A DNA stretch of 12,613 bases from Bryobacterales bacterium. Lineage in GTDB: Bacteria; Acidobacteriota; Terriglobia; Bryobacterales; Bryobacteraceae. Of the stretch, positions 1-12,613 are shown piece after piece. The stretch spans positions 713-13,325 of the forward strand of contig PKZC01000212.1 of assembly GCA_003132905.1 (NCBI GenBank), written 5' to 3'. The first letter of the stretch is position 1, and the number at the start of each line of letters is the position of its first letter. Made by a program: the position numbers and the translations under genes. The notes below the pieces were generated by a model, which was given only the letters and a program-made list of their open reading frames with translations, ran no database searches and was not told where the DNA came from.

Positions 1-1
1 G

Positions 2-658
2 CTCCCGGTGGGCGCGCGCATCCTCGACGTGCCTTGCGGCCAAGGCCGCCATGCCCGGCTCCTCGCAGAGGCTGGCTACGCGGTGGATGCACTCGACTAC
101 TCGGCGCACCTCCTGGGCGTTGCCCGCGCCCTGGGGGCGCGCGAGGGGCTGCACTACCGACGCGGCGACATGCGGGCCCTCCCCGTGCGGTGGACGCACC
201 GGTTCGACGCCGTCATCAACGTGTTCACGTCGTTCGGGTTCTTTCTGCATCCGGGCGACGACCGGCGCGTCCTGCGCGAGTTCGCGCGGACGCTCAAGCC
301 CGGGGGGACGTTCGTCTGGCACGGCGCGAGCCGGGACGGCGTCATGGCGCGGTTCCTGGCCCGGGATTGGTGGCACACCGCGGATCGCACGTTCGTGGCC
401 CACGAGCGGACGTTCGACCCGCTCTCCGGCGTTCTGTCCGTGGATGCACGGTGGCAGGGGAACAGCGGATCCGGGCATCGGACATACCGGATCCGTTTGT
501 ACACCGCGAACCAATTGGCCGATTTACTCGCCGACGTGGGAATCGTCGTTGAGCAAGCGTTCGAAGGCTGGACCGCGCGGCCTCTGACGCGCCGGTCGGG
601 AGAAATGCTCCTCATCGGTCGCAAACGCGAGTTGCCCCGCGTACCGCGGGCCAAGTAA
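2..658 (+). CDS. Class I SAM-dependent methyltransferase, 5'-truncated by window edge
   Basis: The visible 218 residues show a class I methyltransferase fold. The SAM-binding motif I reads DVPCGQGRHA, a variant seen in many small bacterial methyltransferases. It is followed by an acidic residue closing strand 2 (ALDYS), then RGDMRALP and a post-motif stretch FDAVINVFTSFGFF, with LKPGG further on as in UbiE-like enzymes. A GTG lies at position 8, but the frame stays open to the window edge and motif I normally sits 30-60 residues into such proteins, so the true start is probably upstream. The substrate cannot be inferred. It ends in TAA and is followed by a 48-base gap holding a GC-rich hairpin before the B12-subunit gene, so it may be a separate transcription unit from the operon downstream. 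Assignment to the methyltransferase superfamily is confident; any narrower name would be speculation. Confidence 0.82.
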   Translation, partial: LPVGARILDVPCGQGRHARLLAEAGYAVDALDYSAHLLGVARALGAREGLHYRRGDMRALPVRWTHRFDAVINVFTSFGFFLHPGDDRRVLREFARTLKPGGTFVWHGASRDGVMARFLARDWWHTADRTFVAHERTFDPLSGVLSVDARWQGNSGSGHRTYRIRLYTANQLADLLADVGIVVEQAFEGWTARPLTRRSGEMLLIGRKRELPRVPRAK

Positions 659-661
659 ACT

Positions 662-688
662 GCAGGGACGCCGCACGCGGCGTGCTGC
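662..688 (+). terminator. GC-rich hairpin between methyltransferase and B12-subunit gene
   Basis: A perfect 7-bp inverted repeat (ACGCCGC at 668-674 and GCGGCGT at 677-683) is extended by GCAG at 662-665 pairing with CTGC at 685-688 across a small internal loop. It starts 4 bases after the methyltransferase stop. There is no T-run after it, so it is not a classical intrinsic terminator. It could be a T-less terminator or an attenuator in front of the operon. The inverted repeat is seen directly; its role is inference. Confidence 0.35.
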
Positions 689-706
689 CCCATCCGACAC
701 CTCGCC

Positions 707-1126
707 ATGACCGCCTCACGACCTATTCGCGTCCTCGTCGCCAAGCCCGGGTTGGACGGTCATGACCGTGGCGCCAAAGTCGTTGCGGCCGCGTTGCGCG
801 ACGCGGGGATGGAGGTGGTGTATACCGGACTGCACCAGACGCCGGAGATGATCGCGACCGCCGCGGTGCAGGAAGATGTGGACGTGGTAGGGCTCTCGAT
901 CCTCAGCGGTGCACACATGACGCTGTTCCCGCGAGTGCTCCAGCTGTTGCGGGAGCAAGGCCGCGACGACGTGCTGATCACGGGCGGCGGTATCATCCCG
1001 CAGGACGACATGGACGCGCTGCATCTCCAGGGCGTCGGCAAGCTCTTTGGCCCCGGGACATCCACGTCCGAGCTCGTCCGCTATATCCAGGACTGGTTCG
1101 CCCAGCGGCAGCGGCAGGAGGCGTGA
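707..1126 (+). CDS. B12-binding subunit of a methylmalonyl-CoA mutase-type acyl-CoA mutase
   Basis: This 139-residue protein is a complete stand-alone cobalamin-binding domain of the acyl-CoA mutase type. It carries K13, D17, H19 and G22 in the base-off/His-on signature D-x-H-x-x-G (PGLDGHDRG), where the histidine would replace dimethylbenzimidazole as cobalt ligand. It also has the S64-I-L motif and the glycine run G92-G93-G94 that lines the nucleotide tail. The length matches small subunits of two-chain methylmalonyl-CoA or isobutyryl-CoA-type mutases, which work with a separate TIM-barrel subunit. No such catalytic subunit is present on this side of the composition break. Its last four bases form a GTGA overlap with the following carboxylase gene, so the two are probably coupled. 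That pairing suggests a carboxylation and carbon-skeleton rearrangement route for branched or short acyl-CoA thioesters. No strong ribosome-binding site precedes the ATG. Substrate specificity sits in the catalytic subunit and cannot be read from this protein. Confidence 0.9.
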
Positions 1127-2847
1127 CCGCGGCTCGCCGCGCGGCCCCCGCGACGGGGCACCCATCGCCCGAGGGCCGGACCGGGTCCGGAGTGCCGGAT
1201 CGCCGGCCGCGACTCATGCGGTTGGCCGACGAGCTCCGCGAGTTGGAGAGCCGCCTCCGGATGGGCGGCGGGCCGGAGCGCATCCAGCGCCAGCATGCGC
1301 AGGGCAAGCTCGTGGCCCGCGAACGGGTGGCAGGACTGTGCGATGTCGGCGCGCGATTCCTCGAGATCGGCCTGCTCGTCGCCTACGACCAGTACGAGGG
1401 GCAGGCGCCGGGCGCCGGCGTCGTGACCGGAGTGGGAATCGTCCACGGCCGTGAAGTGGTCGTCGTGGCCAACGACGCAACCGTCAAGGCGGGGTCGTGG
1501 TGGCCCGAGACGATCCGCAAGATTCTCCGCGCGCAGGAAATCGCGATGCGCTGCCGAGTGCCGATCGTGTACCTCGTGGACTCGGCGGGCGTGACCCTGC
1601 CGTACCAGGGGGGCGTGTTCCCGGGACAGTACGGCGCCGCGCGCATCTTCTACTACAACTCCATCATGCGTCGCTATCTGCGCGTGCCGCAGCTGGCCGC
1701 CGTGATGGGACAGTGCATCGCCGGTGGCGCGTATTTACCGGCGCTCTCGGATGTCATCGTGATGGTCAAGGGTACGTCGTTCATGGGACTGGGCGGCGCG
1801 AACCTCGTCAAGGGCGCGACCGGCCAGACGGTAGACTCGGAGGCGCTGGGCGGCGCGACCACGCACACGGAACGGAGCGGAGTCGCGCACTACGCGGTCG
1901 ACGACGACGTGGCGTGCCTCGAAAAGCTGCGCGCGCTGATCGGCCGCCTGCCGCCGCCGGCCGCGCGGGCCCCCATGTCCACGCCGCCCTCGAACGCCAC
2001 CGCATCGGCTGAACCGACGGGGCAGGAATTGTACTCGCTGCTGCCCGCCGATCATCGCATGTCGTACGACATGCATACGGTGCTGCGCGCGATCCTCGAC
2101 GGGGGCGCGATCGATGAATTTCAGGAGCATCGCGCGCGCGAAATCATCTGCGGGGATGCGACCATCGAGGGGTGCACGGTCGGCGTGATCGCGAACCAAC
2201 GGGGACTCATTAAAGGCGCCGCCGGAGAGAAGCCGCGCTTCGGCGGCATCATCTATCCCGAGAGCGCGGAGAAAGTCGCCTTCTTCATCGATCGGTGTGA
2301 CCGGCAAGGGATACCGCTCCTGTTCGTTCAGGACGTGTCCGGGTTCATGGTGGGGCCGGAAGCCGAGGAAGCGGGGATCATCCGGGCGGGCGCCCGGTGG
2401 GTCGAAGCGATGGCGACGGCCCGCGTGCCCAAGCTCGTGCTCACGGTCAATCACGCCTCCGGCGCCGGGTACTACGCGATGGCCGGCCAAGGGTTCGATC
2501 CTGATTTCATCTTCACGTGGCCGACGGGCCGGATGGGTGTCATGGAAGGCGAAGCGGCCATTCAGGCCGTGCACGGACCGGTGATCGCGGCCGCCCGGGC
2601 GGCTAACACTCCGCTCGCGCCCGACGTCGCATCGGCGATCGATGGCATGCGCCTCGAATACGAGACTCAGCTCGACGCGCGCTACGCGGCGGCGCGCGGC
2701 CTCGTCGACGCCGTGGTCTATCCGGAAGAGACGCGCGCCGTGCTCGCCATGGCGCTGCGCACCGCGGCGCAGAACCCCGGACCTCACGTCGGTGCCTTCG
2801 TGCTTCCGTGCGATGGGACGCCGGGCGCACACGGGCACGCGACATGA
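1123..2847 (+). CDS. Acyl-CoA carboxylase, carboxyltransferase (beta) subunit
   Basis: This is a biotin-dependent carboxyltransferase subunit that moves CO2 from carboxybiotin to an acyl-CoA. Two crotonase-like halves are visible. The N half has [13 protein letters not shown] and the oxyanion-hole motif GQCIAGGAY (residues 196-204). The C half has QDVSGFMVG (from 403), ASGAGYYAM (about 445-453) and [15 protein letters not shown]. The pattern is closest to the methylcrotonyl-/geranyl-CoA carboxylase branch rather than textbook propionyl-CoA carboxylase, but the substrate is unresolved. No biotin carboxylase or biotin carrier gene is in view, so the alpha subunit must be elsewhere. The listed start is a GTG in a GTGA overlap with the B12 gene. 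Residues 1-31 are low-complexity (Arg, Pro, Gly, Ala) and family similarity begins at M32, so ATG 1216 is a real alternative. The AGGAGG at 1116-1121 lies only one base before the GTG, too close to serve it. A proline/threonine-rich linker (about 285-302) separates the two halves. Confidence 0.92.
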
Positions 2848-2882
2848 GCACGCGACATGAGCACGCCATGAGCAGGCCATGA
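2844..2882 (+). other. 12-codon mini-ORF bridging carboxylase and AtuA genes
   Basis: Reading from ATG 2844 gives [12 protein letters not shown] and a TGA at 2880-2882. Its start overlaps the carboxylase stop by ATGA and its stop overlaps the AtuA start by ATGA (2879-2882). A ribosome that reinitiates at each overlap would be carried across the 31-base gap without scanning. The peptide has no recognisable function. It may be a by-product of the tandem repeat here, but two further gaps in this operon are bridged in the same way. Confidence 0.4.
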
Positions 2883-2887
2883 GCACG
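2844..2887 (+). repeat. Four tandem ATG-containing units across the carboxylase/AtuA gene junction
   Basis: Copies of ATGAGCACG or ATGAGCAGG begin at 2844, 2857, 2868 and 2879, spaced 13, 11 and 11 bases. The first ATG overlaps the carboxylase stop (ATGA). Only the last, at 2879, is in frame with the AtuA gene; those at 2844 and 2868 share one frame and 2857 is in the third. The arrangement looks like slippage or tandem duplication of an original ATGA start/stop overlap. The repeat is seen directly; its origin is inference. Confidence 0.8.
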
Positions 2888-4246
2888 CCTCGCATCGTCC
2901 GCGTCGCGAGCGGCCAAGGATTTTGGGGCGACTGGCTGGAAGCGCCGCGACGTCAGGTGACCGGGGGCCCGGTCGATTACCTGATGCTCGACTACCTCGC
3001 CGAAGTCACGATGTCCATTCTGCAGAAGCAGAAGGAGCGCGATCCCACTCTCGGGTACGCGCGCGATTTCCTGGGCGCCGTTGAGAGTGTGTTGCCGGCC
3101 ATCACCGATCGCGGGGTCCGGGTGGTCGCCAATGCCGGGGGCGTCAACCCACAGGCGTGCGCCGCGGCGGTGCGCGGATTGGCCACCGACCACGGGGCAA
3201 GCGCGGGAGTCCGGATCGGCGTGGTGCTGGGCGACGATCTGCTGCCGCGGCTCGATGCGCTGTTGGCCGCTGGCCATCCGCTGGCGAATATGGAGACCGG
3301 CGAGCCGTTGGCGTCTGTCCGCGATCGGGTGCTGTCCGCCAACGCCTACCTCGGCTCGACGCCGATCGTCGAAGCGCTCACGCGTGGCGCCAACATCGTG
3401 ATCACGGGGCGGTCCACCGACACGGCGCTGACCATGGCGCCACTTCGTCACGAGTTTGGGTGGGCCGCTGACGACTACGATCGACTCGCTGCGGGGATCG
3501 TCGCCGGCCACATCATCGAATGCGGCGCCCAGTGCTCGGGCGGGAACTGCCTCTACGACTGGCGCGACATCCCGGACTTGGGCGAGGTCGGGTACCCGAT
3601 CGTCGAAGTCGCGGCCGACGGCACTTTCGTGGTCACCAAGCATCCCCACACCGGCGGCCGGGTCTCGACGCAATCGGTGGCTGAGCAACTGGTGTATGAG
3701 ATGGGTGATCCACACTCGTACATCACGCCCGATGTGATCGCGGACTTCACGACGATCCGTCTTGCGGCCGATGGGGCCGACCGGGTGCGCGTGCACGGCA
3801 TCAAAGGCCGTCCGGCGACCGACAGCCTGAAAGTGTCGGTCGCGTATCGGGCCGGCTACAAGGCCGTCGGCACGCTGGTCTATGCATGGCCGGACGCGGT
3901 CGAGAAGGCGCAGGCCGCCGACCGCGTGCTGCGCGAGCGGCTCGACCGGCTCGGGTTGCACTTCGATCGTGTGTTGACCGAGTTCGTCGGAGCGGGCGCC
4001 ACCCACGGCGCCCTGGCCGGCCCACCGTCACCGGACCTTCCGGAAGTCCAGCTGCGGATCGGTGTCCGGGGCAGCAGTCGCCGCGATGTCGAGCGGTTCA
4101 CGCGCGAGATCGCCCCGCTGGTGCTCAACGGACCGCCCAGCGTCACGGGCTTCGCCGGCGGCCGACCGAAGGTCGAAGAGGTCGTCGCCTACTGGCCCGC
4201 GCTCATCGACAAGCGCGTCGTGCAGCCGACCGTGGAGATGCAATGA
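2879..4246 (+). CDS. AtuA-family (acyclic terpene utilisation) N-terminal domain protein
   Basis: The 455-residue product matches the AtuA domain family (formerly DUF1446) along its length. It begins with the typical N-terminal [10 protein letters not shown], then [15 protein letters not shown] and ARDF. Next come a glycine-rich [10 protein letters not shown] segment, [19 protein letters not shown] and a cysteine cluster [11 protein letters not shown]. Near the C-terminus is [12 protein letters not shown]. AtuA is named from the Pseudomonas citronellol/geraniol operon, where it accompanies geranyl-CoA carboxylase. Its biochemical activity has not, to my knowledge, been firmly established. In many homologues a small ferredoxin-like domain is fused at the C-terminus; here that domain is encoded by the next gene. 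Adjacency to an acyl-CoA carboxylase fits a role in catabolism of branched or isoprenoid acyl-CoA. ATG 2879 is chosen because the three earlier tandem ATGs are out of frame. A weak AGCAGG sits 2 bases upstream, so translation probably depends on coupling. Confidence 0.88.
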
Positions 4247-4260
4247 GGCCCGCCCGCTGA
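4243..4260 (+). other. 5-codon mini-ORF bridging the two AtuA-domain genes
   Basis: ATG 4243 overlaps the stop of the large AtuA gene (ATGA). It reads MRPAR and stops with TGA at 4258-4260, whose last base is the A of the next gene's ATG (TGATG). The 13-base gap is thus bridged by a start/stop chain. It is too short to be called a gene; it is recorded as a possible translational-coupling device. Confidence 0.35.
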
Positions 4261-4649
4261 TGCGCGTTCGACTCCTCGACATCGCGCATGCCCGATCGGG
4301 TGACAAAGGCGACACGGCCAACGTCGGCATCCTCGCGCTCCGCCCGGAGTGGTACGAGGTGCTGGACCAGTACGTGACACGCGACCGGGTGGCCGCCCAT
4401 TTCACCGGGTTGATCACCGGCGACGTGATACGATTCGCCCTTCCCAACCTCGGCGCCCTCAATTTTCTGCTGCATGGTGCGCTCGACGGCGGCGGTACGC
4501 TGTCGCTCAAGACGGACGCGCAGGGCAAGGTGGTATCGACCGCGCTCCTCCGCATGGTGATCGACGTTCCCGACGACGTGGCCACGCGGTTGCGGCTGCC
4601 GGCCGCGCCCGCGGCAGCGCCGTCCGGCCCCCGGCAGTCAGTCCGATGA
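4260..4649 (+). CDS. AtuA C-terminal ferredoxin-fold domain as a separate small protein
   Basis: The 129-residue protein corresponds to the small C-terminal domain found at the end of full-length AtuA proteins. It opens with the hallmark RLLDIAHARSGDKGDTANVG (residues 4-23). It continues with HFTGLITGDVIRFALPNLGA, NFLLHGALDGGG and SLKTDAQGK before a low-complexity Ala/Pro tail. ATG 4260 is the only start that puts the conserved domain right at the N-terminus; the open frame extends upstream but that part is a shadow of the AtuA gene. It is preceded by a TGATG overlap with a 5-codon mini-ORF. The domain probably assembles with the upstream 455-residue protein into a two-chain AtuA. Its enzymatic role is unknown. 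Its stop forms an ATGA overlap with another mini-ORF. Confidence 0.85.
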   Translation: MRVRLLDIAHARSGDKGDTANVGILALRPEWYEVLDQYVTRDRVAAHFTGLITGDVIRFALPNLGALNFLLHGALDGGGTLSLKTDAQGKVVSTALLRMVIDVPDDVATRLRLPAAPAAAPSGPRQSVR

Positions 4650-4719
4650 CCGCCCCGCGACGTCACGGCATGCTCGGGGCGTCCACATGATGGTCGCCGG
4701 TCCTCTCCGCTCCAGATGA
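4646..4719 (+). other. Two consecutive mini-ORFs (14 and 9 codons) bridging to the 53-residue gene
   Basis: ATG 4646 overlaps the previous gene's stop (ATGA) and reads MTAPRRHGMLGAST to TGA 4688-4690. That stop shares its A with ATG 4690 (TGATG), which reads MVAGPLRSR to TGA 4717-4719. This in turn overlaps ATG 4716 of the 53-residue membrane protein (ATGA). The 66-base gap is therefore covered by an unbroken start/stop chain. No function is visible in the peptides. Codon-level detail is certain; translation is not. Confidence 0.38.
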
Positions 4720-4877
4720 CGGCGCTCACGGCCACCAAGCTGACGTTGGCGGTGACCGGGCTGGCGGTCTTTGGGTACGGGGTCCGAAGTGACCTCGTCG
4801 TGTGGCGCTGGACCGGCATCGTCTGTCTTGGGGTGGCGTTTCTCCTGCGCTTTGTTGGGTCGCGGGATCGTCGTTAA
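4716..4877 (+). CDS. Small membrane protein, 53 residues, two predicted helices
   Basis: The frame from ATG 4716 to TAA 4875-4877 encodes 53 residues with two hydrophobic stretches, about 9-23 (LTLAVTGLAVFGYGV) and 33-47 (TGIVCLGVAFLLRFV). They are joined by a short loop containing RSD and WRW, and a positive tail SRDRR suggests a cytoplasmic C-terminus. I do not recognise the family. It is a credible gene rather than chance because of its amphipathic two-helix layout, the basic tail and its position between two real genes. It has no clear ribosome-binding site and begins in an ATGA overlap with a mini-ORF. Nine bases separate its stop from the GTG of the U32 gene. It may belong to the AtuA operon or be a companion of the U32 gene; nothing in the sequence decides. 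Confidence 0.55.
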   Translation: MTALTATKLTLAVTGLAVFGYGVRSDLVVWRWTGIVCLGVAFLLRFVGSRDRR

Positions 4878-4886
4878 GTTGTTAGG

Positions 4887-6014
4887 GTGACGATAGTTTC
4901 CTCGCCACCGCGGTCTGAGCGACGGCCACGCGTGCGCGCGCCGGCCGCCGAGCGTTCGGGCGCTACCCTCCCACGGGTCAGCGTCCCGGAGCTGCTTGCG
5001 CCCGCAGGAACGATGGAGGCGGTCCGGGCCGCGGTCGCCAACGGCGCGGATGCCGTCTACCTCGGGGCCGGCGGGTTCAATGCGCGGGACGACGGCGCGC
5101 AGCTCACGCTGGACGAGCTCGGCGAGGCGTGCCGCTTGGCACACGCGTGCGGCACGCGGATCTATTTCACGCTCAATGTTCTGATCAAGCCGTCGGAGCT
5201 GACGAATGCTCTGGTGCTCCTCAGTGACGCCGTTGACCGGGGCATCGACGCCGTGATCGTGCAGGACCTGGGATTGATTCGCTTGATCCGAGCCATGTTT
5301 CCCGACCTCGAAGTGCACGGCTCCACGCAGATCACGGTGCACGATCCGGCGGGGGCGGCGGCGGTGCAGGATCTGGGCGTCGCTCGGGTGGTATTGGCCC
5401 GCGAGAATTCGCTCGACGACCTGCGCGCGATTCGGGACGCGGTTCCGGGGCTCGGGCTCGAGGCGTTTGTGCACGGCGCCCTCTGCATCTCGTATTCCGG
5501 CCAGTGCCTGATGTCCGGCCTGATCTCCGAACGCAGCGCCAATCGCGGGGCGTGCGCGCAGGCCTGTCGCAAGGACTACACGCTGACCGATGCGACCGAC
5601 GGCGCGACGCTTGATAGCGGCTACCTGATCTCGGCGAAAGATCTCGCGGCGTACGACGAGCTCGCCGCGCTGGCCGACGCCGGTATCCGCTGCCTCAAGA
5701 TCGAAGGACGGAAAAAACGGCCGGAATACGTGGCCACGGTGACCCATGGCTACCGTCAGTGGCTCGACGCCATGGCGCGCGGCGTGCCGGTTCTCACATC
5801 CAACGTATCCGCGATGCCCGAAATTGCAGGTGATGCTGCGCTGCTGGTCGACCCTTCCGACGTGGAGTCGATTGCGGACGGACTCCGCCGCCTGACAGGG
5901 AGCCAAGCTTTGCGAGACACATACGCCAGCGCTGGCATTGCGCGGGCCAGTGAATTTACGTGGGAAAAATCGGTAGAGGCGACCTGGACGGTCTACCAAG
6001 AGTTGCTAGGTTAG
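4887..6014 (+). CDS. Chimeric frame: U32-family protein N-part fused to glycosyltransferase tail
   Basis: Residues about 33-298 are a U32-family ('peptidase U32') protein. This group includes TrhP/YegQ and RlhA, which act in tRNA or rRNA hydroxylation with prephenate and an Fe-S cluster. The fold begins VPELLAPAGTMEAV and GADAVYLGAGGFNAR. The family signature EAFVHGALCISYSGQCLMS follows, with GACAQACRKDY supplying two more cysteines of the four-cysteine set, then LKIEGRKKRPEYVA. At residues 295-299 (AMARG) the sequence changes to the end of a GT4 glycosyltransferase: GVPVLTSN, MPEIAGDAALLVDP and a C-terminal helix ending YQELLG. The U32 portion lacks the rest of its barrel and any C-terminal domain. 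The glycosyltransferase portion lacks its whole N-terminal domain and the first glutamate of EX7E. Start GTG 4887 gives a 32-residue disordered leader; a later start is possible. This is most likely a product of contig mis-joining rather than a natural fusion. Confidence 0.8.
   Translation: MTIVSSPPRSERRPRVRAPAAERSGATLPRVSVPELLAPAGTMEAVRAAVANGADAVYLGAGGFNARDDGAQLTLDELGEACRLAHACGTRIYFTLNVLIKPSELTNALVLLSDAVDRGIDAVIVQDLGLIRLIRAMFPDLEVHGSTQITVHDPAGAAAVQDLGVARVVLARENSLDDLRAIRDAVPGLGLEAFVHGALCISYSGQCLMSGLISERSANRGACAQACRKDYTLTDATDGATLDSGYLISAKDLAAYDELAALADAGIRCLKIEGRKKRPEYVATVTHGYRQWLDAMARGVPVLTSNVSAMPEIAGDAALLVDPSDVESIADGLRRLTGSQALRDTYASAGIARASEFTWEKSVEATWTVYQELLG
5766..5790. other. Probable chimeric junction between two genomes
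   Basis: The U32 signal ends and the glycosyltransferase signal begins within codons spelling Asp-Ala-Met-Ala-Arg-Gly-Val-Pro. AMARG/GVPV wording is normal in GT4 proteins, and the upstream YRQWLDAMARG would also be a natural U32 continuation, so a short identical word in two genomes could have joined them. GC falls from about 70% in a line left of it to about 60% on its right, and the gene style changes with it. Confidence 0.75.
5769..6014 (+). pseudogene. C-terminal fragment of a GT4-family glycosyltransferase
   Basis: These roughly 80 residues match the end of GT-B, family-4 glycosyltransferases. An AMARGVPVLTSN turn normally follows the EGFGLPxLE motif, then come SAMPEIAGDAALLVDP, a helix with ADGLRRL, and EFTWEKSVEATWTVYQ. 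The upstream two-thirds of the enzyme is absent and replaced by U32 sequence in the same frame. Codon use and GC (about 57-63% in hand-counted lines) resemble the genes to the right, not those to the left. In its own genome this gene is probably intact and adjacent to the 105-residue gene. Confidence 0.75.
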
Positions 6015-6031
6015 CTCGTCCTAGCTTTTTT
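6005..6031 (+). terminator. Intrinsic terminator after the glycosyltransferase tail
   Basis: GCTAGG (6005-6010) and CCTAGC (6020-6025) form a perfect 6-bp stem around a 9-base loop and are followed by six T residues (6026-6031). The hairpin overlaps the stop codons of both convergent genes. The T-run favours + strand termination. The stem is short, so strength is uncertain. Confidence 0.5.
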
Positions 6032-6338
6032 CTTCGTCGATCGCGATCTTCAGTGCTTTCAGGAACTTTTGGTCTTGCGACGTCAGCTTGATCTTGCCAG
6101 TGGATTCAAACTTCCGCTTAGGTGCGGCTTCGGCATCCAGAACGGCTTCGCCATCCTCCGATTCGTCGCCATTCTCCTCGCGCTTATTGAACCCAATGGT
6201 GGCTTCCAAAACCAGGAAAACGTCGTACCCTGCTCGCTTGATCTCGCCGATGGCGGCAGCAATGCGATCGGAGTCGGACAGCGATTCGTTGATCGCGTTT
6301 CCAAGCTCTTGCATCAACTCTTTGAGTTTCTCTTCCAC
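6021..6338 (-). CDS. Conserved-looking acidic small protein of unknown function
   Basis: The 105-residue product starts at a GTG (complement of 6336-6338). An AAAGGGG ribosome-binding site lies 6 bases upstream (complement of 6345-6351), which decides the start. The N half looks like a helical domain (LKELMQELGNAINESLSDSD, then RIAAAIGEIKRAGYDVFLVL). A strongly acidic, probably disordered linker follows (EENGDESEDGEA), and then a short basic/hydrophobic C-terminal segment with TSQDQKFLKALKI. No signal peptide or membrane helix is seen. I do not recognise a named domain. The layout of a folded helical head plus charged tail resembles small acidobacterial hypothetical proteins. It converges on the glycosyltransferase fragment with only 6 bases between stops. 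A possible sigma70-like promoter lies upstream at 6381-6409. Confidence 0.72.
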   Translation of the reverse strand: MEEKLKELMQELGNAINESLSDSDRIAAAIGEIKRAGYDVFLVLEATIGFNKREENGDESEDGEAVLDAEAAPKRKFESTGKIKLTSQDQKFLKALKIAIDEEKS

Positions 6339-6380
6339 GCATTGCCCCTTTCTTTGCAGCGGGCTCCTTCTAAGAATAAC

Positions 6381-6409
6381 ACTCTACCCTCTTGATGTTG
6401 CCGAGGCAA
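6381..6409 (-). promoter_or_regulatory. Candidate sigma70-type promoter for the 105-residue gene
   Basis: On the - strand, TTGCCT (complement of 6404-6409) and TAGAGT (complement of 6381-6386) are separated by exactly 17 bases. They lie about 43-70 bases before the GTG. Both hexamers are imperfect matches to the consensus, so this is a candidate only. The remainder of the intergenic stretch 6339-6533 holds no other structure I can support. Confidence 0.35.
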
Positions 6410-6533
6410 GTACAGTTTCAAACAAAAGGTAAGTGTCCCGGCTTCCTGCTTTCGCTCTCCCATTTCCTCTATCGGCCCGTTCCAGCGATATCAGTAGCGA
6501 CCGTCCCCGCCTTCGGTACACTGGTACTAGCCT

Positions 6534-6785
6534 ATGTTTTCAACGGCAAAAAAGTTCCTTGCACATGTGATGCCAGAGGTCATCAAACCGATTCATACTC
6601 TGTGGAATCAAGTGATCGGCTTTTTTTTCATCGTCTTGGCCCTTCTGCCTCTACATGCCATCTTTCGCGACTGGGGTAAAGACGATACCGGCCCCCGGCT
6701 GGCGCTGGAAATTCCGTTCGCCCTGATCATGGCCGGCTTCGGCATTCACTCCTTTCTGCGCGCCCGTAAGATCTCTAAGTCATAA
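6534..6785 (+). CDS. Small two-helix membrane protein upstream of the mutase
   Basis: The 83-residue protein has a basic, amphipathic N-terminus (residues 1-26). A hydrophobic helix at about 27-44 (VIGFFFIVLALLPLHAIF) is followed by a charged loop RDWGKDDTG, a second helix at about 57-75 and a basic tail RARKISK. Two-helix proteins of this style recur as uncharacterised small proteins in Acidobacteriota. Its TAA (6783-6785) is three bases before the mutase ATG and in the same frame, so the two are almost certainly co-transcribed and coupled. No ribosome-binding site is obvious before ATG 6534. A T8 run at 6621-6628 lies inside the first helix codons. Function is unknown; a role with the soluble mutase is not implied by sequence. 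Confidence 0.68.
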   Translation: MFSTAKKFLAHVMPEVIKPIHTLWNQVIGFFFIVLALLPLHAIFRDWGKDDTGPRLALEIPFALIMAGFGIHSFLRARKISKS

Positions 6786-6788
6786 ATC

Positions 6789-8282
6789 ATGACCGAAGAC
6801 CTGCCCGGCCAGTACCCCTTCACCCGAGGGATATATCCGGACATGTATCGCAGCCGCCTCTGGACCATGCGCCAGTACGCCGGCTTTGGAACCGCCGAAG
6901 AAAGCAATCGCCGCTATCGTTATCTTTTATCCCAAGGCATCACCGGACTTTCAGTCGCCTTCGACCTTCCCACCCAAATGGGCATGGATTCCGATCACCC
7001 TCTCGCCGCCGGAGAAGTGGGCCGCGTGGGCGTCGCCATCTGCTCTCTCGCCGACATGCAGCGTCTTCTTGAAGGCATCCGCCTGGCCGATATCACTACT
7101 TCGATGACCATTAACTCCACGGCGGCCATCCTGTTGTGCCTCTATGTGCTGGTGGCCAAAAGCCAGGGCGCCGACCCCTCCAAAATATCCGGCACCATCC
7201 AGAACGACATCCTGAAGGAATATATCGCTCGCGGAACCTACATCTATCCCCTACGCCCCGCGATGCGCATCATCACTGACCTCTTCGCCTGGTCCGCACG
7301 CGAACTGCCGGAATGGAACACCATCTCCATCAGCGGCTATCACATTCGCGAGGCGGGCTCAACGGCGATTCAAGAAGTGGCGTTCACGCTCGCCAACGCC
7401 ATTGCCTACATCAGCGCCGCACTGGAAGCTGGCCAGGATGTAGATGCCTTCGCCCCCCGCCTTTCCTTTTTCTTTAATTCGCACAGCGATTTTCTGGAAG
7501 AGATCGCCAAGTTCCGCGCCGCCCGCAGGCTATACGCAAAAATTATGCGCGAGCGGTTCGGCGCCCGTAATCCCCGCTCGATGATGCTGCGTTTTCATGT
7601 GCAGACGGCCGGCTCGACGCTTACCGCCCAGCAGCCCGACGTCAATGTGGTCCGCGTTTCGCTGCAAGCCCTCGCTGCTGTGCTCGGCGGCGCTCAATCG
7701 GTGCACACCAACGCCAAGGACGAAGCTCTCGGCCTTCCCACTGAAGACGCGGCGCGCCTGGCTCTGCGCACCCAGCAGATCATCGCGCACGAGACCGGTG
7801 TAACCAATACGGCCGATCCCGTGGGTGGCAGTGTTGTCATCGAACAGCGTACGGACGAAATCGAAAGAGGCGCGCGGGAATATATCCAGCGTATCGACGC
7901 CATGGGCGGCACCTTGGCCGCCATCGAAACAGGATTCATTCAAAATGAGATTCAAAACGCGGCCTACGCCTATCAGCAGAAGGTGGAACGGGGCGAGGCC
8001 GTGGTGGTTGGCGTGAATCGGTTTCATCAGGACGAGAAGGAGCCGCTCAGCACGTTCCGCCTCGATCCCGAGCTTGAGAAACAGCAGATCAGCCGCCTGC
8101 GCGATTTGCGCGCCTCACGCGATGCTGGTTTGGTAGACGCGCGCCTCAACGCGCTCGAGAACGCCGCCCGCTCCAGCGACAATCTGATGCCGCTTATCAT
8201 GGACTGCGCCGAAGCCTACGCCACGGTGGGAGAAATTTCAGACCGGCTCCGCGCCGTCTTCGGCGAATACCAGGAACGCTGA
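6789..8282 (+). CDS. Methylmalonyl-CoA mutase catalytic (large) subunit, no B12 domain
   Basis: This 497-residue protein is the TIM-barrel catalytic chain of a two-subunit methylmalonyl-CoA mutase-family enzyme. It would interconvert methylmalonyl-CoA and succinyl-CoA with a separate B12 subunit. Aligned by spacing to the Propionibacterium enzyme, it keeps Y30 (equivalent of Tyr89, in RQYAGFGT), Q138 (Gln197, [11 protein letters not shown]), R148 (Arg207, which reads the substrate carboxylate) and H185 (His244, SGYHIREAG). Tyr and Arg at these places favour methylmalonyl-CoA over isobutyryl- or 2-hydroxyisobutyryl-Co[11 protein letters not shown] and [18 protein letters not shown] place it in the separate-subunit branch. 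The C-terminal B12 domain is absent and the protein ends FGEYQER. The N-terminus begins only some 8 residues before YPFTRG. It is shorter than many homologues by an estimated 40 residues, and an in-frame stop at 6783-6785 rules out an upstream extension. No MeaB-type chaperone or B12 subunit is adjacent. Confidence 0.93.
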
Positions 8283-8375
8283 GACGGTAAAGCTGATTAA
8301 TCGCGTTCCTTAAGTAATAACCCTAGTTGCTTACCAGAGAATCTTCCGTAATTCTGTAGAAGCACCCAGAAATTC

Positions 8376-8391
8376 GGAGGATACCGCGTTG
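8376..8391 (+). promoter_or_regulatory. Strong ribosome-binding site setting a TTG start
   Basis: GGAGG at 8376-8380 is followed by 8 bases and then TTG (8389-8391). The codons after this TTG encode a clear signal peptide, which supports it as the start of the giant secreted protein. No ATG start lies upstream in frame nearby. The 106-base gap 8283-8388 shows no convincing terminator or promoter. Confidence 0.75.
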
Positions 8392-11300
8392 ATCACTCGA
8401 AGAATACGTGTACTAGGTCTCGCTTTTCTTTGCGCCGGTTTAGCCGCTGCGCAACCAGGCTTGATTCAAACGTACGCGGGCAACGGCAATGGCTATACTT
8501 CCGGCGACGGCGGACCCGCTATTAGCGCCGGCGTCGCTAACCCCTTGGGGCTCACCTTCGACGCAAGCGGCAATCTCTACATCGCGAGCGCCTCTGGTCA
8601 GCGGGTACGGGCCGTGAACGCAATCTCCTCGATTATTACAACCGTAGCAGGCGGCGGCACCGGAGGCGATGGGGTTCTCGCAACGGCCGCCCAGCTTGCG
8701 GATCCTTGCGATGTAAAACTGGATTCCGCTGGCAACATATATTTGTCGGATACTTGCGGCACCGCCAGCAGCGGGGGCGGAGGCGGAGGCGGGGGCGAAG
8801 CCTTTAGCTCAACGGGCAGAGTGCGGCGCGTGGATGCCGTCACGGGAATTATTACGACTCTCGCAGGCAGCGGAATCACGGGTTTCGGCGGTGACGGCGG
8901 TGCAGCCACTAGCGCCATGCTCAATATTCCGACCGGACTCGCGATCGATGCATCGGGGAACATCTATATCGCCGATGCCGGCAACAATCGTATCCGGCGC
9001 GTGGATGCCGTCACCGGCATTATCACCACCGTGGCTGGCAATGGCACAGCCGCATTTGCTGGAGACGGTGGTATTGCAACTGCGGCCAGCCTCAACAGCC
9101 CAGACGGCGTGGCGGTGGACTCATTTGGCAACCTCTATGTCGCCGATTCCGTGAACAATCGCGTACGCCTTATCAATGCCTCCAGCGGCATTATTACAAC
9201 CCTGGCGGGCACCGGCAGCCCGAATTTCAATGGGGATGGAATTTCGGCCACGAGTGCCAATCTCAATAATCCTGTGACCGTGTTGCTGAATTCCTCAGGG
9301 AATTTGTTAATCGCAGATTCGCTGAATTATCGGGTTCGCATGCTGGACATGTCCTCGGGCCTGATCTGGACCCTGGCCGGCAACGGCGGATCCCTGGGAT
9401 GCTGCACCAGCGTCGTCAACGGAGTCCAGGCGACCGAGGCCCCGCTTGCGTTCCCAGCCGGATTGGCAATCTCGCCATCCGGCGCGCTGTTCGTCTCCGA
9501 ATTACAAGCGAACCGCGTGCGCGAAGTGGCACTCCCCAGCCCGTATGCCAGCACCGCAGTTACCATCTCGGCGAATGCCACGAGCATCCCGTATGGAACA
9601 TCGGTCACGCTAACGGCGACTATCTCCGCAATCAATGGACTCGGCAGGAACGCCTCAGGCCAAGTGCTTTTCCTAGACAGCGTGGCGCCAAACGACCTCG
9701 GTGGGCCTGGCGTTGCCGGTGGCTTGGCGATCCTCACCGCCACTTCGTTGAGCCAGGGCGTCCACGTTATCACCGCGTTTTACAATGGCGATTCAGCCTT
9801 CGGCTACAGCATCTCAGCTCCGTTCACCGTCACCGTAACAGCCCCGCAGACTTCCATCACAATGGCGGCGAATCCTAATCCGGCCACTGCGAATCAACCG
9901 ATCACGCTGACGGCTACTCTCACGTCGTCCAACGCGTCTGGCGGTGTCACCTTCTTCAATGGCGGTAACGCACTAGGAACTGTCATGGTCCTGTCCGGGA
10001 CTGCAACTTTGCCCGGAATCACGCTTGCCGCCGGCACTTACTCGTTGTCTGCGCAATATAGTAGCAGCAATAGTTTTCCCCCGGCTACGTCTCCGGCGAT
10101 CAGTTTGACCGTGAAAGCTAGCTCCTCGGTAGTGGTGACGTCCAGCGCGAATCCATCCAATACAAAGCAGGCTGTAACTTTCACGGCCACTGTGACTCCC
10201 GCAACGGCTACCGGCACGGTTCAATTCCTGGATGCAATCGGCATTATCGGCTCGGCAACCCTGACCAACGGGTCCGCCACGTTCAGTCCTGCTTCCTTGA
10301 GCCAAGGCACCCATTCCATCACCGTAAAATACGCGGGCGATTCGAACAATGGACCCTCTACTTCCGCCGTGCTGACGCAAACAGTGCAAGCTTCGTCATC
10401 CGTAACCTTGATGTCAATGCCGAATCCCGTGGTTGTTGGATCGCCGGTTACCTTCAGCGCTAACGTTTCACCTTCAACGGCTACCGGTAACGTACAGTTC
10501 CTGGATGGAACTACGGTACTCGGCACAGTCGCGCTCACTAATAACGGCTTCGCTTCTTTCACGACTTCTTCGTTGACTCAAGGGTCGCACTCGATCACCG
10601 CCTCATACGCGGGCGATTCGAACGACACGTCCGCCACTTCCGCGGTTCTCACACAAACGGTGCAAGCCGCATCTTCAGTCGTTTTGACCGCGACTCCGAA
10701 TCCGGCCACCGTCGCGTCCCCCGTCACCCTTACCGCCACGGTTACTCCTGCCTCCGCTACAGGCAACGTGAAATTCCTAGACGGCGCCACGCTGATCGGC
10801 ACAATCGCGCTCACTAACGGCGTCGCCTCTTTCAGTACTTCTTCGCTGACCCAAGGCTCGCACGCCATCACCGCCTCCTACGTGGGCGATGCGAACGATA
10901 CATCCGCCACTTCCGCCGTTGTCACCGAGACGGTCCAAGCCTCTTCGTCAGTCGCGCTAACGTCTACTCCGAATCCGGCTACTGTAGGGGCTGCCGTGAT
11001 CCTTACCGCCAGCGTCACTCCCGCGTCCGCCACCGGGAACGTAAAATTCCTGGATGGAGCCACGCTGCTGGGGACGGTTGCCCTCACCAACGGCGTCGCC
11101 TCTTTCAGCACTTCTTCTTTGACCCAAGGCCAGCACTCGATTACGGCCTCCTACGCGGGCGATGCTAACGATACATCCGCCACTTCCGCCGTTGTCACCG
11201 AAACCGTGCAAGCCTCATCGTCCGTCGCCCTAACCTCGACTCCGAATCCCGCAGCCATTGGCGGAGCGGTCACCTTTACGGCCGTGGTCACACCCTCCGC

Positions 11301-12613
11301 GGCCACAGGCACCGTGCAGTTCTTGGATGGAGCAACGCCGCTGGGCACCGCTACACTGGCAAACGGGACGGCTTTGTTCAGCACGTCCTCACTGGCCCAA
11401 GGCGCGCACTCGATAACAGCAACCTACAGCGGCGATGCCAACGATACTGCCGCCACATCTGGAGCGCTGCCTCAGAGCGTGAAAGCCGCGGTGGGATTGA
11501 CTATCGGGGTGAACCCAACTTATATCGTTGGTCAAACCGTCACCATTACAGCGAACATGAACGCGACCGCTACCGGCACAGTCACTTTCACTGATGGCGG
11601 CACGCTGCTTGCAACGGTTCCCGTGACATCGGGGACAGCCGCCTATTCGAGCGCCACCTTGGCGCAGGGTACACACTCCATCGGCATCAGCTACAGTGGC
11701 GATACGAATTTTCTCAGCGTCTCAACCACAGCAACCGTAACGATGCTAGGTTCAACCTCAATTGCCGTCGCCTCGAATCTGAATCCCGCGCTCCCAGCCC
11801 AAGCGGTCACGTTCACCGCCACCGTCACGCCGGCCGTGGCTACCGGGACCGTTCAATTCTATGACGGCGCGACACTCCTGGCGACGTCCACCTTGACCAG
11901 CGGCGTCGCCACATACTCCACCTCCGCTCTCAGCGCCGGTACCCACTCCATTACGGCGAATTATAGCGGTAGTTCTGCCTACGGCCCCAGCTATTCGAGC
12001 GCACTCACAGAGGTGATCAAAGCGAGTACGTCCGTCACGCTCTCTTCTTCTTTAAATCCAGCCCCGGCTGGATCCGGCGTCACGTTCACGGCCGTTGTGT
12101 CTCCTAGCGCGGCCACCGGCACTGTACAATTTCTCGACGGCGTCACCGTAATCGGATCCGCGACTCTGGCGAACGGCTCAGCCTCCTTCACCACGGCTTC
12201 CCTAAGCCCAGGAACTCACTCCATCACTGCCAGCTATGGCGGCAGCTCCAATTATGCGGCCGCCAATTCGAGCGTACTTTCGCAGATCGTCAAGGCGAAC
12301 ACTTCAGTCGCTCTTTCGTCATCTTTGAATCCGTCGATTGCGGGAACGGCAGTTACGTTCACCGCCCTAGTGACTCCTGCAACGGCCACCGGCACGGTCC
12401 AGTTTCTTGACGGCGCTACAGTACTCGGGTCAGCGGCCATCTCTGGCGGCCAAGCGTCCTTCACCACCTCTTCACTGGCTCAAGGGGTGCAGTCCATCAC
12501 TGCCGTTTATGGCGGCGACGCTGCGGATAGTGGATCAAGCTCAGCCCCACTCACAGAAACCGTGAATCCCCCAGCGCCCTCCGCCCCGTCGAACCTGACA
12601 GCCACCGCCGCGG
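8389..12613 (+). CDS. Giant secreted NHL-propeller / multi-Ig-like domain protein, 3'-truncated by window
   Basis: The frame stays open for 1408 codons to the window edge. Residues 1-21 form a signal peptide (basic RRIR, hydrophobic VLGLAFLCAGL, AAA just before Q22). Residues about 22-384 hold six NHL repeats with the pattern P-x-G-[LV]-x-[VIL]-D-x-x-G-N-[LI]-[YL]-[IV]-x-D ... N-x-[RV]-[IV]-R, joined by ITTxAGxG, which suggests one six-bladed propeller. Blade 2 contains an eight-glycine insert (129-136). From residue 385 eleven Ig-like domains of 87-101 residues follow, starting near 385, 486, 578, 669, 761, 852, 943, 1034, 1121, 1213 and 1304. Most carry [AT]TGTVQFLDG, L-x-x-G-x-HSITAxYxGD and end T-V-x-A, the bacterial Ig-like (Big) style. 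PSAPSNLTATAA at 1396-1407 is probably the beginning of a fibronectin type III domain. Such proteins are common in Acidobacteriota and are thought to be extracellular or surface-attached; ligand and anchor are unknown. Confidence 0.9.
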   Translation, partial: MITRRIRVLGLAFLCAGLAAAQPGLIQTYAGNGNGYTSGDGGPAISAGVANPLGLTFDASGNLYIASASGQRVRAVNAISSIITTVAGGGTGGDGVLATAAQLADPCDVKLDSAGNIYLSDTCGTASSGGGGGGGGEAFSSTGRVRRVDAVTGIITTLAGSGITGFGGDGGAATSAMLNIPTGLAIDASGNIYIADAGNNRIRRVDAVTGIITTVAGNGTAAFAGDGGIATAASLNSPDGVAVDSFGNLYVADSVNNRVRLINASSGIITTLAGTGSPNFNGDGISATSANLNNPVTVLLNSSGNLLIADSLNYRVRMLDMSSGLIWTLAGNGGSLGCCTSVVNGVQATEAPLAFPAGLAISPSGALFVSELQANRVREVALPSPYASTAVTISANATSIPYGTSVTLTATISAINGLGRNASGQVLFLDSVAPNDLGGPGVAGGLAILTATSLSQGVHVITAFYNGDSAFGYSISAPFTVTVTAPQTSITMAANPNPATANQPITLTATLTSSNASGGVTFFNGGNALGTVMVLSGTATLPGITLAAGTYSLSAQYSSSNSFPPATSPAISLTVKASSSVVVTSSANPSNTKQAVTFTATVTPATATGTVQFLDAIGIIGSATLTNGSATFSPASLSQGTHSITVKYAGDSNNGPSTSAVLTQTVQASSSVTLMSMPNPVVVGSPVTFSANVSPSTATGNVQFLDGTTVLGTVALTNNGFASFTTSSLTQGSHSITASYAGDSNDTSATSAVLTQTVQAASSVVLTATPNPATVASPVTLTATVTPASATGNVKFLDGATLIGTIALTNGVASFSTSSLTQGSHAITASYVGDANDTSATSAVVTETVQASSSVALTSTPNPATVGAAVILTASVTPASATGNVKFLDGATLLGTVALTNGVASFSTSSLTQGQHSITASYAGDANDTSATSAVVTETVQASSSVALTSTPNPAAIGGAVTFTAVVTPSAATGTVQFLDGATPLGTATLANGTALFSTSSLAQGAHSITATYSGDANDTAATSGALPQSVKAAVGLTIGVNPTYIVGQTVTITANMNATATGTVTFTDGGTLLATVPVTSGTAAYSSATLAQGTHSIGISYSGDTNFLSVSTTATVTMLGSTSIAVASNLNPALPAQAVTFTATVTPAVATGTVQFYDGATLLATSTLTSGVATYSTSALSAGTHSITANYSGSSAYGPSYSSALTEVIKASTSVTLSSSLNPAPAGSGVTFTAVVSPSAATGTVQFLDGVTVIGSATLANGSASFTTASLSPGTHSITASYGGSSNYAAANSSVLSQIVKANTSVALSSSLNPSIAGTAVTFTALVTPATATGTVQFLDGATVLGSAAISGGQASFTTSSLAQGVQSITAVYGGDAADSGSSSAPLTETVNPPAPSAPSNLTATAA
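8773..8796 (+). repeat. G-rich microsatellite encoding eight glycines
   Basis: Eight consecutive GGN codons with almost no T interrupt NHL blade 2 of the secreted protein. The G runs (five G at each end with GG pairs between) could form a G-quadruplex on the + strand. It probably forms a flexible surface loop in the propeller and is a site prone to length change. Confidence 0.7.
9541..12567 (+). repeat. Array of eleven Ig-like domain-coding repeats, about 273 bp period
   Basis: Boundaries set by the T-V-x-A ends are near 9541, 9844, 10120, 10393, 10669, 10942, 11215, 11488, 11749, 12025, 12298 and 12567. Units 3, 5, 6, 7 and 10 are exactly 273 bp. Units 4 to 7 are the closest at protein level. 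Units 5 and 6 share a 35-base exact match starting at 10894 and 11167, exactly 273 bases apart, yet differ at many synonymous positions elsewhere. Units 1, 2 and 8 are more diverged. Confidence 0.88.

What the first reader, a model, noticed from the sequence alone, without database searches (positions are those of the whole stretch)
5740..5830. In-frame U32/glycosyltransferase hybrid marks a probable two-genome chimera
The first 298 codons of the 4887-6014 frame are a U32 protein and the rest is a GT4 glycosyltransferase tail. The switch falls on an AMARG-GVP stretch that is natural to both proteins. Both partners are truncated, GC drops by about 10 points by hand count of neighbouring lines, and gene content changes from a high-GC terpene/acyl-CoA operon to acidobacterial-style genes. 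All gene-neighbourhood inferences across this point should be treated as void until it is tested.
Basis: partly seen in the sequence, partly recalled or inferred. Interest (0 to 1): 0.7.

Follow-up and report, generated by a model that had tools for sequence, protein, structure and literature searches.

The report
Two-genome chimeric contig, misjoined at 5784
This stretch is most likely two unrelated bacteria glued together by an assembly (or library) error at a short DNA word that both share, so the odd hybrid gene across the join is not a real gene.

Summary
Window 1-5784 matches one held genome (G001, contig C87) at 5780 of 5784 bases. At base 5785 the match ends, and G001 continues with the rest of an ordinary U32 peptidase gene. 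Hits of the left half's AtuA protein that name an organism are Gemmatimonadaceae/Gemmatirosa (11 of 12 named rows among 120 listed). Window 5787-8280 is collinear (77% DNA identity) with a Bryobacterales (Acidobacteriota) genome. There the glycosyltransferase (GT4) gene is full length, in the same order: GT4, a convergent 105-aa gene, an 83-aa gene, methylmalonyl-CoA mutase. G001 and that genome share an exact 23-base word, GCTCGACGCCATGGCGCGCGGCG, ending exactly at the break (5762-5784); it encodes LDAMARG in both proteins. GC falls from 68.6% to 58.6%. The fusion has 1 member on 1 contig in a 5.8-billion-protein database. Best explanation: a false join through a shared word. Reads could not be inspected and the exact right-hand genome is not held, so an assembler error cannot be separated from an in vitro chimera. 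Gene-neighbourhood inferences across 5762-5785 should not be used.

The parts
1..5784 (.). Left source: Gemmatimonadaceae-type genome; identical to G001:C87:39433-45216 except 4 bases (508, 1595, 5217, 5223)
707..1126 (+). B12-binding domain protein (PF02310), left genome
1123..2847 (+). Carboxyl transferase domain protein (PF01039), left genome
2879..4246 (+). AtuA family protein (PF07287), left genome; 11 of 12 organism-naming hits say Gemmatimonadaceae/Gemmatirosa
4887..5784 (+). 5' part of a U32 peptidase gene, cut after residue 299
5762..5784 (.). Exact 23-base word shared by G001 (left source) and by the nearest held relative of the right source (L101); the join lies here
5785..6014 (+). 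3' tail of a GT4 glycosyltransferase gene, right source (Bryobacterales)
6021..6338 (-). Convergent 105-aa protein, no Pfam family; found in 17 of 20 Bryobacterales loci
6534..6785 (+). 83-aa protein, no Pfam family; found in 20 of 20 Bryobacterales loci
6789..8282 (+). Methylmalonyl-CoA mutase-type gene (name recalled from the sequence; not scanned against a family library), right source, 89% aa to L101
8389..12612 (+). NHL/Big_3_5 repeat protein running off the window; assigned to the right-hand source by composition only

Best explanation
The window is a chimeric contig. A Gemmatimonadaceae genome (1-5784) and a Bryobacterales genome (from within 5762-5785 rightwards) were falsely joined at a short exact word present in both, GCTCGACGCCATGGCGCGCGGCG. 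By coincidence the word encodes LDAMARG in the same frame in a U32 peptidase gene and in a GT4 glycosyltransferase gene. SHOWN: the left match ends at 5784; the U32 continues in G001; full GT4 genes stand in the same order in Bryobacterales; the 23-base word is shared by G001 and the nearest held Bryobacterales relative; composition shifts at the join. INFERRED: that the true right source has the same word (its DNA is not held), and that the join arose in the assembly graph (about 0.89) rather than in the library (about 0.08). The confidence given is for a false join of either kind.
For: (1) G001 matches 1-5784 with 4 mismatches; then 88 of the next 116 bases differ, and its frame continues as U32 with PF01136 to profile position 230/233 plus PF12392. 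(2) In 14 genomes of the family picked by me from the 99 (G001 included), 14 of 14 carry the U32; in 13 one alignment runs past the break (in G274, G264, G302 and G305 by only 64-65 bases), and in the 14th (G312) it stops before the break, with a second collinear piece beyond. (3) The right half matches G200:C70 at 77% over 5787-8280, best of 257 genomes of the order. Of the 20 best such loci, 12 show GT4 upstream of the mutase, each running over 120 residues upstream of the join; 8 show none within the flank held; 0 of 20 show U32. (4) The shared 23-base word ends at the break. (5) Tetranucleotide distance: left half 0.109 to G001 and 0.391 to Bryobacterales; right half 0.432 and 0.186. Controls nearest their own source: 18 of 18 and 19 of 19 chunks. 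(6) The fusion has 1 member on 1 contig; of 120 listed hits (1247 found) 118 are GT-only, 1 U32-only, 1 this fusion. (7) A 60-base pattern over the join (5745-5804, up to 3 mismatches) is in 0 of 257 genomes of the order of G002 and 0 of 148 of the family of G001.
Against: No reads, coverage or read pairs were available. The exact right source is not held: the shared word is shown in a relative 77% identical, and the nine other Bryobacterales loci compared share only 5-13 bases with G001 there. The second composition measure (Markov-corrected) points the same way but weakly for the right half: correlation 0.257 to Bryobacterales, 0.112 to G001. G001 has a 2-base N 1142 bases past the break. 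Apart from G001, the genomes are other species, so their zeros are weak. About 4 shared 23-base words per genome pair are expected from base composition alone: this says such bridges are common, not that one acted here.
Confidence: 0.97

Rival explanations
1. An in vitro chimera: template switching or ligation of two fragments during library making or whole-genome amplification, then assembled faithfully. (This is a part of the 0.97 for a false join.)
For: A short exact shared word at the join also suits template switching; the outcome for biology is the same, two genomes falsely joined.
Against: By general reasoning, not tested here: a rare chimeric molecule would normally be outvoted by intact molecules on both sides, while a graph join at a shared word needs no such molecule.
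Confidence: 0.08
2. A genuine recombination or horizontal transfer in a living cell, giving a real U32-GT4 fusion in one lineage.
For: The frame stays open through the join, and a contig with it was assembled.
Against: A genome with the U32 continuing past the break is 99.93% identical on the left, so the event would have to be very recent. The right flank keeps Bryobacterales gene order to 8280 and Bryobacterales-like composition to the window end. Among the 7 window proteins scanned against Pfam none is a mobile-element family (the mutase was not scanned). The hybrid lacks most of the GT4 and the U32 C-terminal part. It has 1 member on 1 contig.
Confidence: 0.02
3. The window is right and G001 is the misassembled one.
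For: G001 is a draft of about 110 contigs, 92% complete.
Against: G001's continuation is a U32 gene with its expected domains and is matched across the break in one alignment in the 12 relatives other than G312; the window's continuation is a headless GT4.
Confidence: 0.005

Closest known systems
Inter-genome chimeric contigs in metagenome assembly ('chimeric nodes' of a multispecies de Bruijn graph; MetaVelvet-DL paper PMC8171044, passages seen)
   Same: A stretch of sequence common to two species with two incoming and two outgoing paths, wrongly paired.
   Different: Those passages speak of evolutionarily similar species; here the word is a 23-base coincidence between phyla. That this assembler type was used for the window is not known.
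Scaffold chimeras of two organisms (Accurate and complete genomes from metagenomes, PMC7111523, passages seen)
   Different: The paper also uses missing paired-read support and coverage change, which could not be tested here.
Peptidase U32 (PF01136) and GT4 glycosyltransferase (PF00534/PF13692/PF13439)
   Same: Each half of the hybrid frame is an ordinary member fragment.
   Different: Each half is truncated; no other listed protein has both (1 of 120 listed).

Membership tests
Inter-genome chimeric contig | The two sides belong to different organisms | tested here: met
   Left: G001, 99.93%; 11 of 12 organism-naming AtuA hits Gemmatimonadaceae/Gemmatirosa, at 80-82% identity. Right: Bryobacterales.
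Inter-genome chimeric contig | Each side continues past the join in its own genome or in relatives | tested here: met
   U32 passes the break in one alignment in 13 of 14 genomes; GT4 extends upstream of the join in the 12 of 20 loci where it was seen.
Inter-genome chimeric contig | Join at an exact word shared by the two sources | tested here: inconclusive
   23 bases shared by G001 and the nearest held relative of the right source; the right source itself is not held.
Inter-genome chimeric contig | Composition shift at the join | tested here: met
   GC 0.686 to 0.586; tetranucleotide distances.
Inter-genome chimeric contig | No read-pair support; coverage step | not testable with these tools
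   No reads available.
Real U32-GT4 gene fusion | Recurs in independent genomes | tested here: not met
   1 member, 1 contig; 1 of the 120 listed hits (of 1247) has both families. Join pattern of 60 bases: 0 of 257 and 0 of 148 genomes.
Real U32-GT4 gene fusion | Both domains complete enough to work | tested here: not met
   U32 profile matched only to 202/233; GT profiles matched only from 94/142 and 110/172.

The most novel reading that the evidence does not exclude
A very recent real inter-phylum recombination put Bryobacterales DNA into a Gemmatimonadaceae genome inside a U32 gene at a 23-base microhomology, making an in-frame U32-GT4 fusion. Nothing here positively supports it; only the lack of reads keeps it open.
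Probability: 0.01. Interest if true: 0.45.

Novelty: not a real feature. Interest (0 to 1): 0.1.

Why it matters
It is a clean worked example of an inter-phylum false join that leaves an open reading frame, so a gene caller accepts it: the hybrid stands as P0001 in the protein set searched. It also sets a trap. The left genome has a match to the mutase gene just upstream of the window's start (G001:C87:37809-38836, 67% DNA identity), beside the B12-binding and carboxyl transferase genes. The mutase inside the window belongs to the other organism and must not be read as part of that operon.

Tried and rejected
Considered and set aside: a real fusion, a recent transfer, a wrong G001 assembly (see rivals). 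Looked for the exact right-hand source in 257 genomes of the order: the best is 77% over 5787-8280, so it is not among them. Looked for a second join between the mutase gene and the NHL protein: in 8 Bryobacterales loci with the mutase none shows the NHL N-terminus (first 300 residues, E 1e-5; the flanks held vary, from about 1.3 kb in L168 to about 10 kb), so the neighbourhood 8282-8389 is neither confirmed nor disproved; composition there stays nearer Bryobacterales. The last protein search named few organisms, of several phyla, and did not settle the taxonomy of the NHL protein. It did give P0347, equal to the window's frame in 1383 of 1384 aligned residues but with one extra 91-aa stretch, listed for a contig of 56,414 bases, against 27,785 for the fusion's contig. 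I read this as a second assembly of the right-hand genome, but no GT4 above 94% other than the fusion was listed, so I could not show that that contig has the intact GT4. Extrapolating the sample count of shared 23-base words (1 in about 119 kb x 77 kb) to whole genomes rests on one event and is not used. The 30-base pattern (0 of 394 genomes of the class of G001) covers 5766-5795, that is, no base unique to the left side, so it is a weak test; repeat it with bases of both sides. No reads, long-read data or metagenome contigs were searched.

Full report
Observation. The frame 4887-6014 is open for 375 aa. Pfam places Peptidase_U32 at residues 112-300 and the end of GT-B glycosyltransferase domains from residue 293. 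GC is 0.686 left of 5785 and 0.586 from there on, and GC skew turns mostly negative.

Left source. The window's own assembly is not held, but a held genome, G001, carries window 1-5784 on contig C87, with mismatches at 508, 1595, 5217 and 5223 only. From 5785 the two diverge (88 of 116 bases differ), although C87 goes on for another 3190 bases. There G001's frame continues as a U32 protein, with the U32 domain to profile position 230/233 and a PF12392 domain after it; a 2-base N lies 1142 bases past the break. I picked 14 genomes of the family, G001 included, out of 99 searched. All 14 carry the gene. In 13 a single alignment crosses the break, in four of them by only 64-65 bases; in G312 the alignment stops at query 857, before the break at 898, and a second collinear piece lies beyond it. 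Some part of the left half is matched in 98 of 99 family genomes. Gemmatimonadaceae is in Gemmatimonadota.

Right source. Of the four best relatives of the mutase gene, three are titled Bryobacterales and one Acidobacteria. Bryobacterales is in Acidobacteriota. Among 257 genomes of that order the best DNA match is G200:C70 (L101), 77% over 5787-8280 in one alignment. That locus reads GT4 (P0002 residues 1-342), convergent 105-aa gene, 83-aa gene, mutase. Of the 20 best loci, 12 show GT4 in this place, 17 the 105-aa gene, 20 the 83-aa gene and 20 the mutase; none shows U32. In the other 8 loci no GT4 was seen within the flank held, whether cut off or absent. In the 12 with GT4 the gene extends over 120 residues upstream of the join. 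The closest proteins to the tail, after the fusion itself, are GT4s of 343 aa at 94-88% identity (P0002-P0008, unnamed organisms); the two listed rows that name an organism, P0009 (82%) and P0019 (79%), say Bryobacteraceae.

The join. G001 and L101 share GCTCGACGCCATGGCGCGCGGCG exactly, at window 5762-5784. It ends on the very base where G001 and the window part. In the U32 it encodes part of WLDAMARGAAEP, in GT4 relatives part of VLDAMARGVPV. Nine other Bryobacterales loci compared share only 5-13 bases with G001 there, so the long word looks like a coincidence of one lineage. From base composition alone about 4 exact 23-base words are expected between genomes of these sizes, so such bridges are unremarkable in a complex sample. 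That common assemblers start with words as short as 21 is my own knowledge.

Composition control. With six G001 stretches and eight Bryobacterales stretches from three genomes as references (they include the L101 locus itself), tetranucleotide distances put the left half with G001 (0.109 against 0.391) and the right half with Bryobacterales (0.186 against 0.432). All 18 and 19 control chunks fell with their own source. A Markov-corrected measure agrees, strongly on the left (correlation 0.772 against 0.481) and weakly on the right (0.257 against 0.112). The NHL part alone (8389-12613) is less typical (0.281 against 0.443), as its repeats would make it (all).

Independence. The fusion stands as one member on one contig of 27,785 bases in the protein database; of 1247 hits 120 are listed, and of these 118 carry GT domains only, 1 U32 only, 1 both. 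A 60-base pattern over the join was found in 0 of 257 genomes of the order of G002 and 0 of 148 of the family of G001. Apart from G001 these are other species, so the zeros are weak; the weight rests on G001 itself.

Mechanism and literature. Passages seen in PMC8171044 describe chimeric nodes, stretches common to two species in a mixed de Bruijn graph; passages in PMC7111523 describe rare chimeric scaffolds told by lack of paired reads, coverage or phylogenetic profile; passages in PMC8201837 call such misassemblies relatively rare. I conclude that this is such a false join (0.97 for any kind). Whether it arose in the computer or in the tube cannot be told without reads.

Consequence. Treat 1-5784 and 5785-12613 as two loci. 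The mutase of the right half does not belong to the B12-binding, carboxyl transferase and AtuA genes of the left half; the left genome has its own match to it at G001:C87:37809-38836, just before the window's start. Whether 5785-12613 is itself one piece beyond 8282 was not settled.

Noticed in passing
6021-6338 (-) and 6534-6785 (+): Two small proteins without a Pfam family sit between GT4 and the mutase gene and are found there in Bryobacterales (17 and 20 of 20 loci); the 105-aa one is 59-91% identical in those 17.
   Followed up: partly
8389-12612: NHL plus Big_3_5 repeat protein; a near-identical database version (P0347) has one extra 91-aa stretch (1383 of 1384 aligned residues equal), which may be strain variation or a collapsed repeat in one assembly.
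   Followed up: partly
L003 (G001:C87:37809-38836), just left of the window's start: The left genome also has a match to the mutase gene close to the window (67% DNA identity), which makes the false neighbourhood look plausible.
   Followed up: partly
L085:8359-8360: A 2-base N in G001 lies inside the U32 gene; the reading after it appears in another frame.
   Followed up: no
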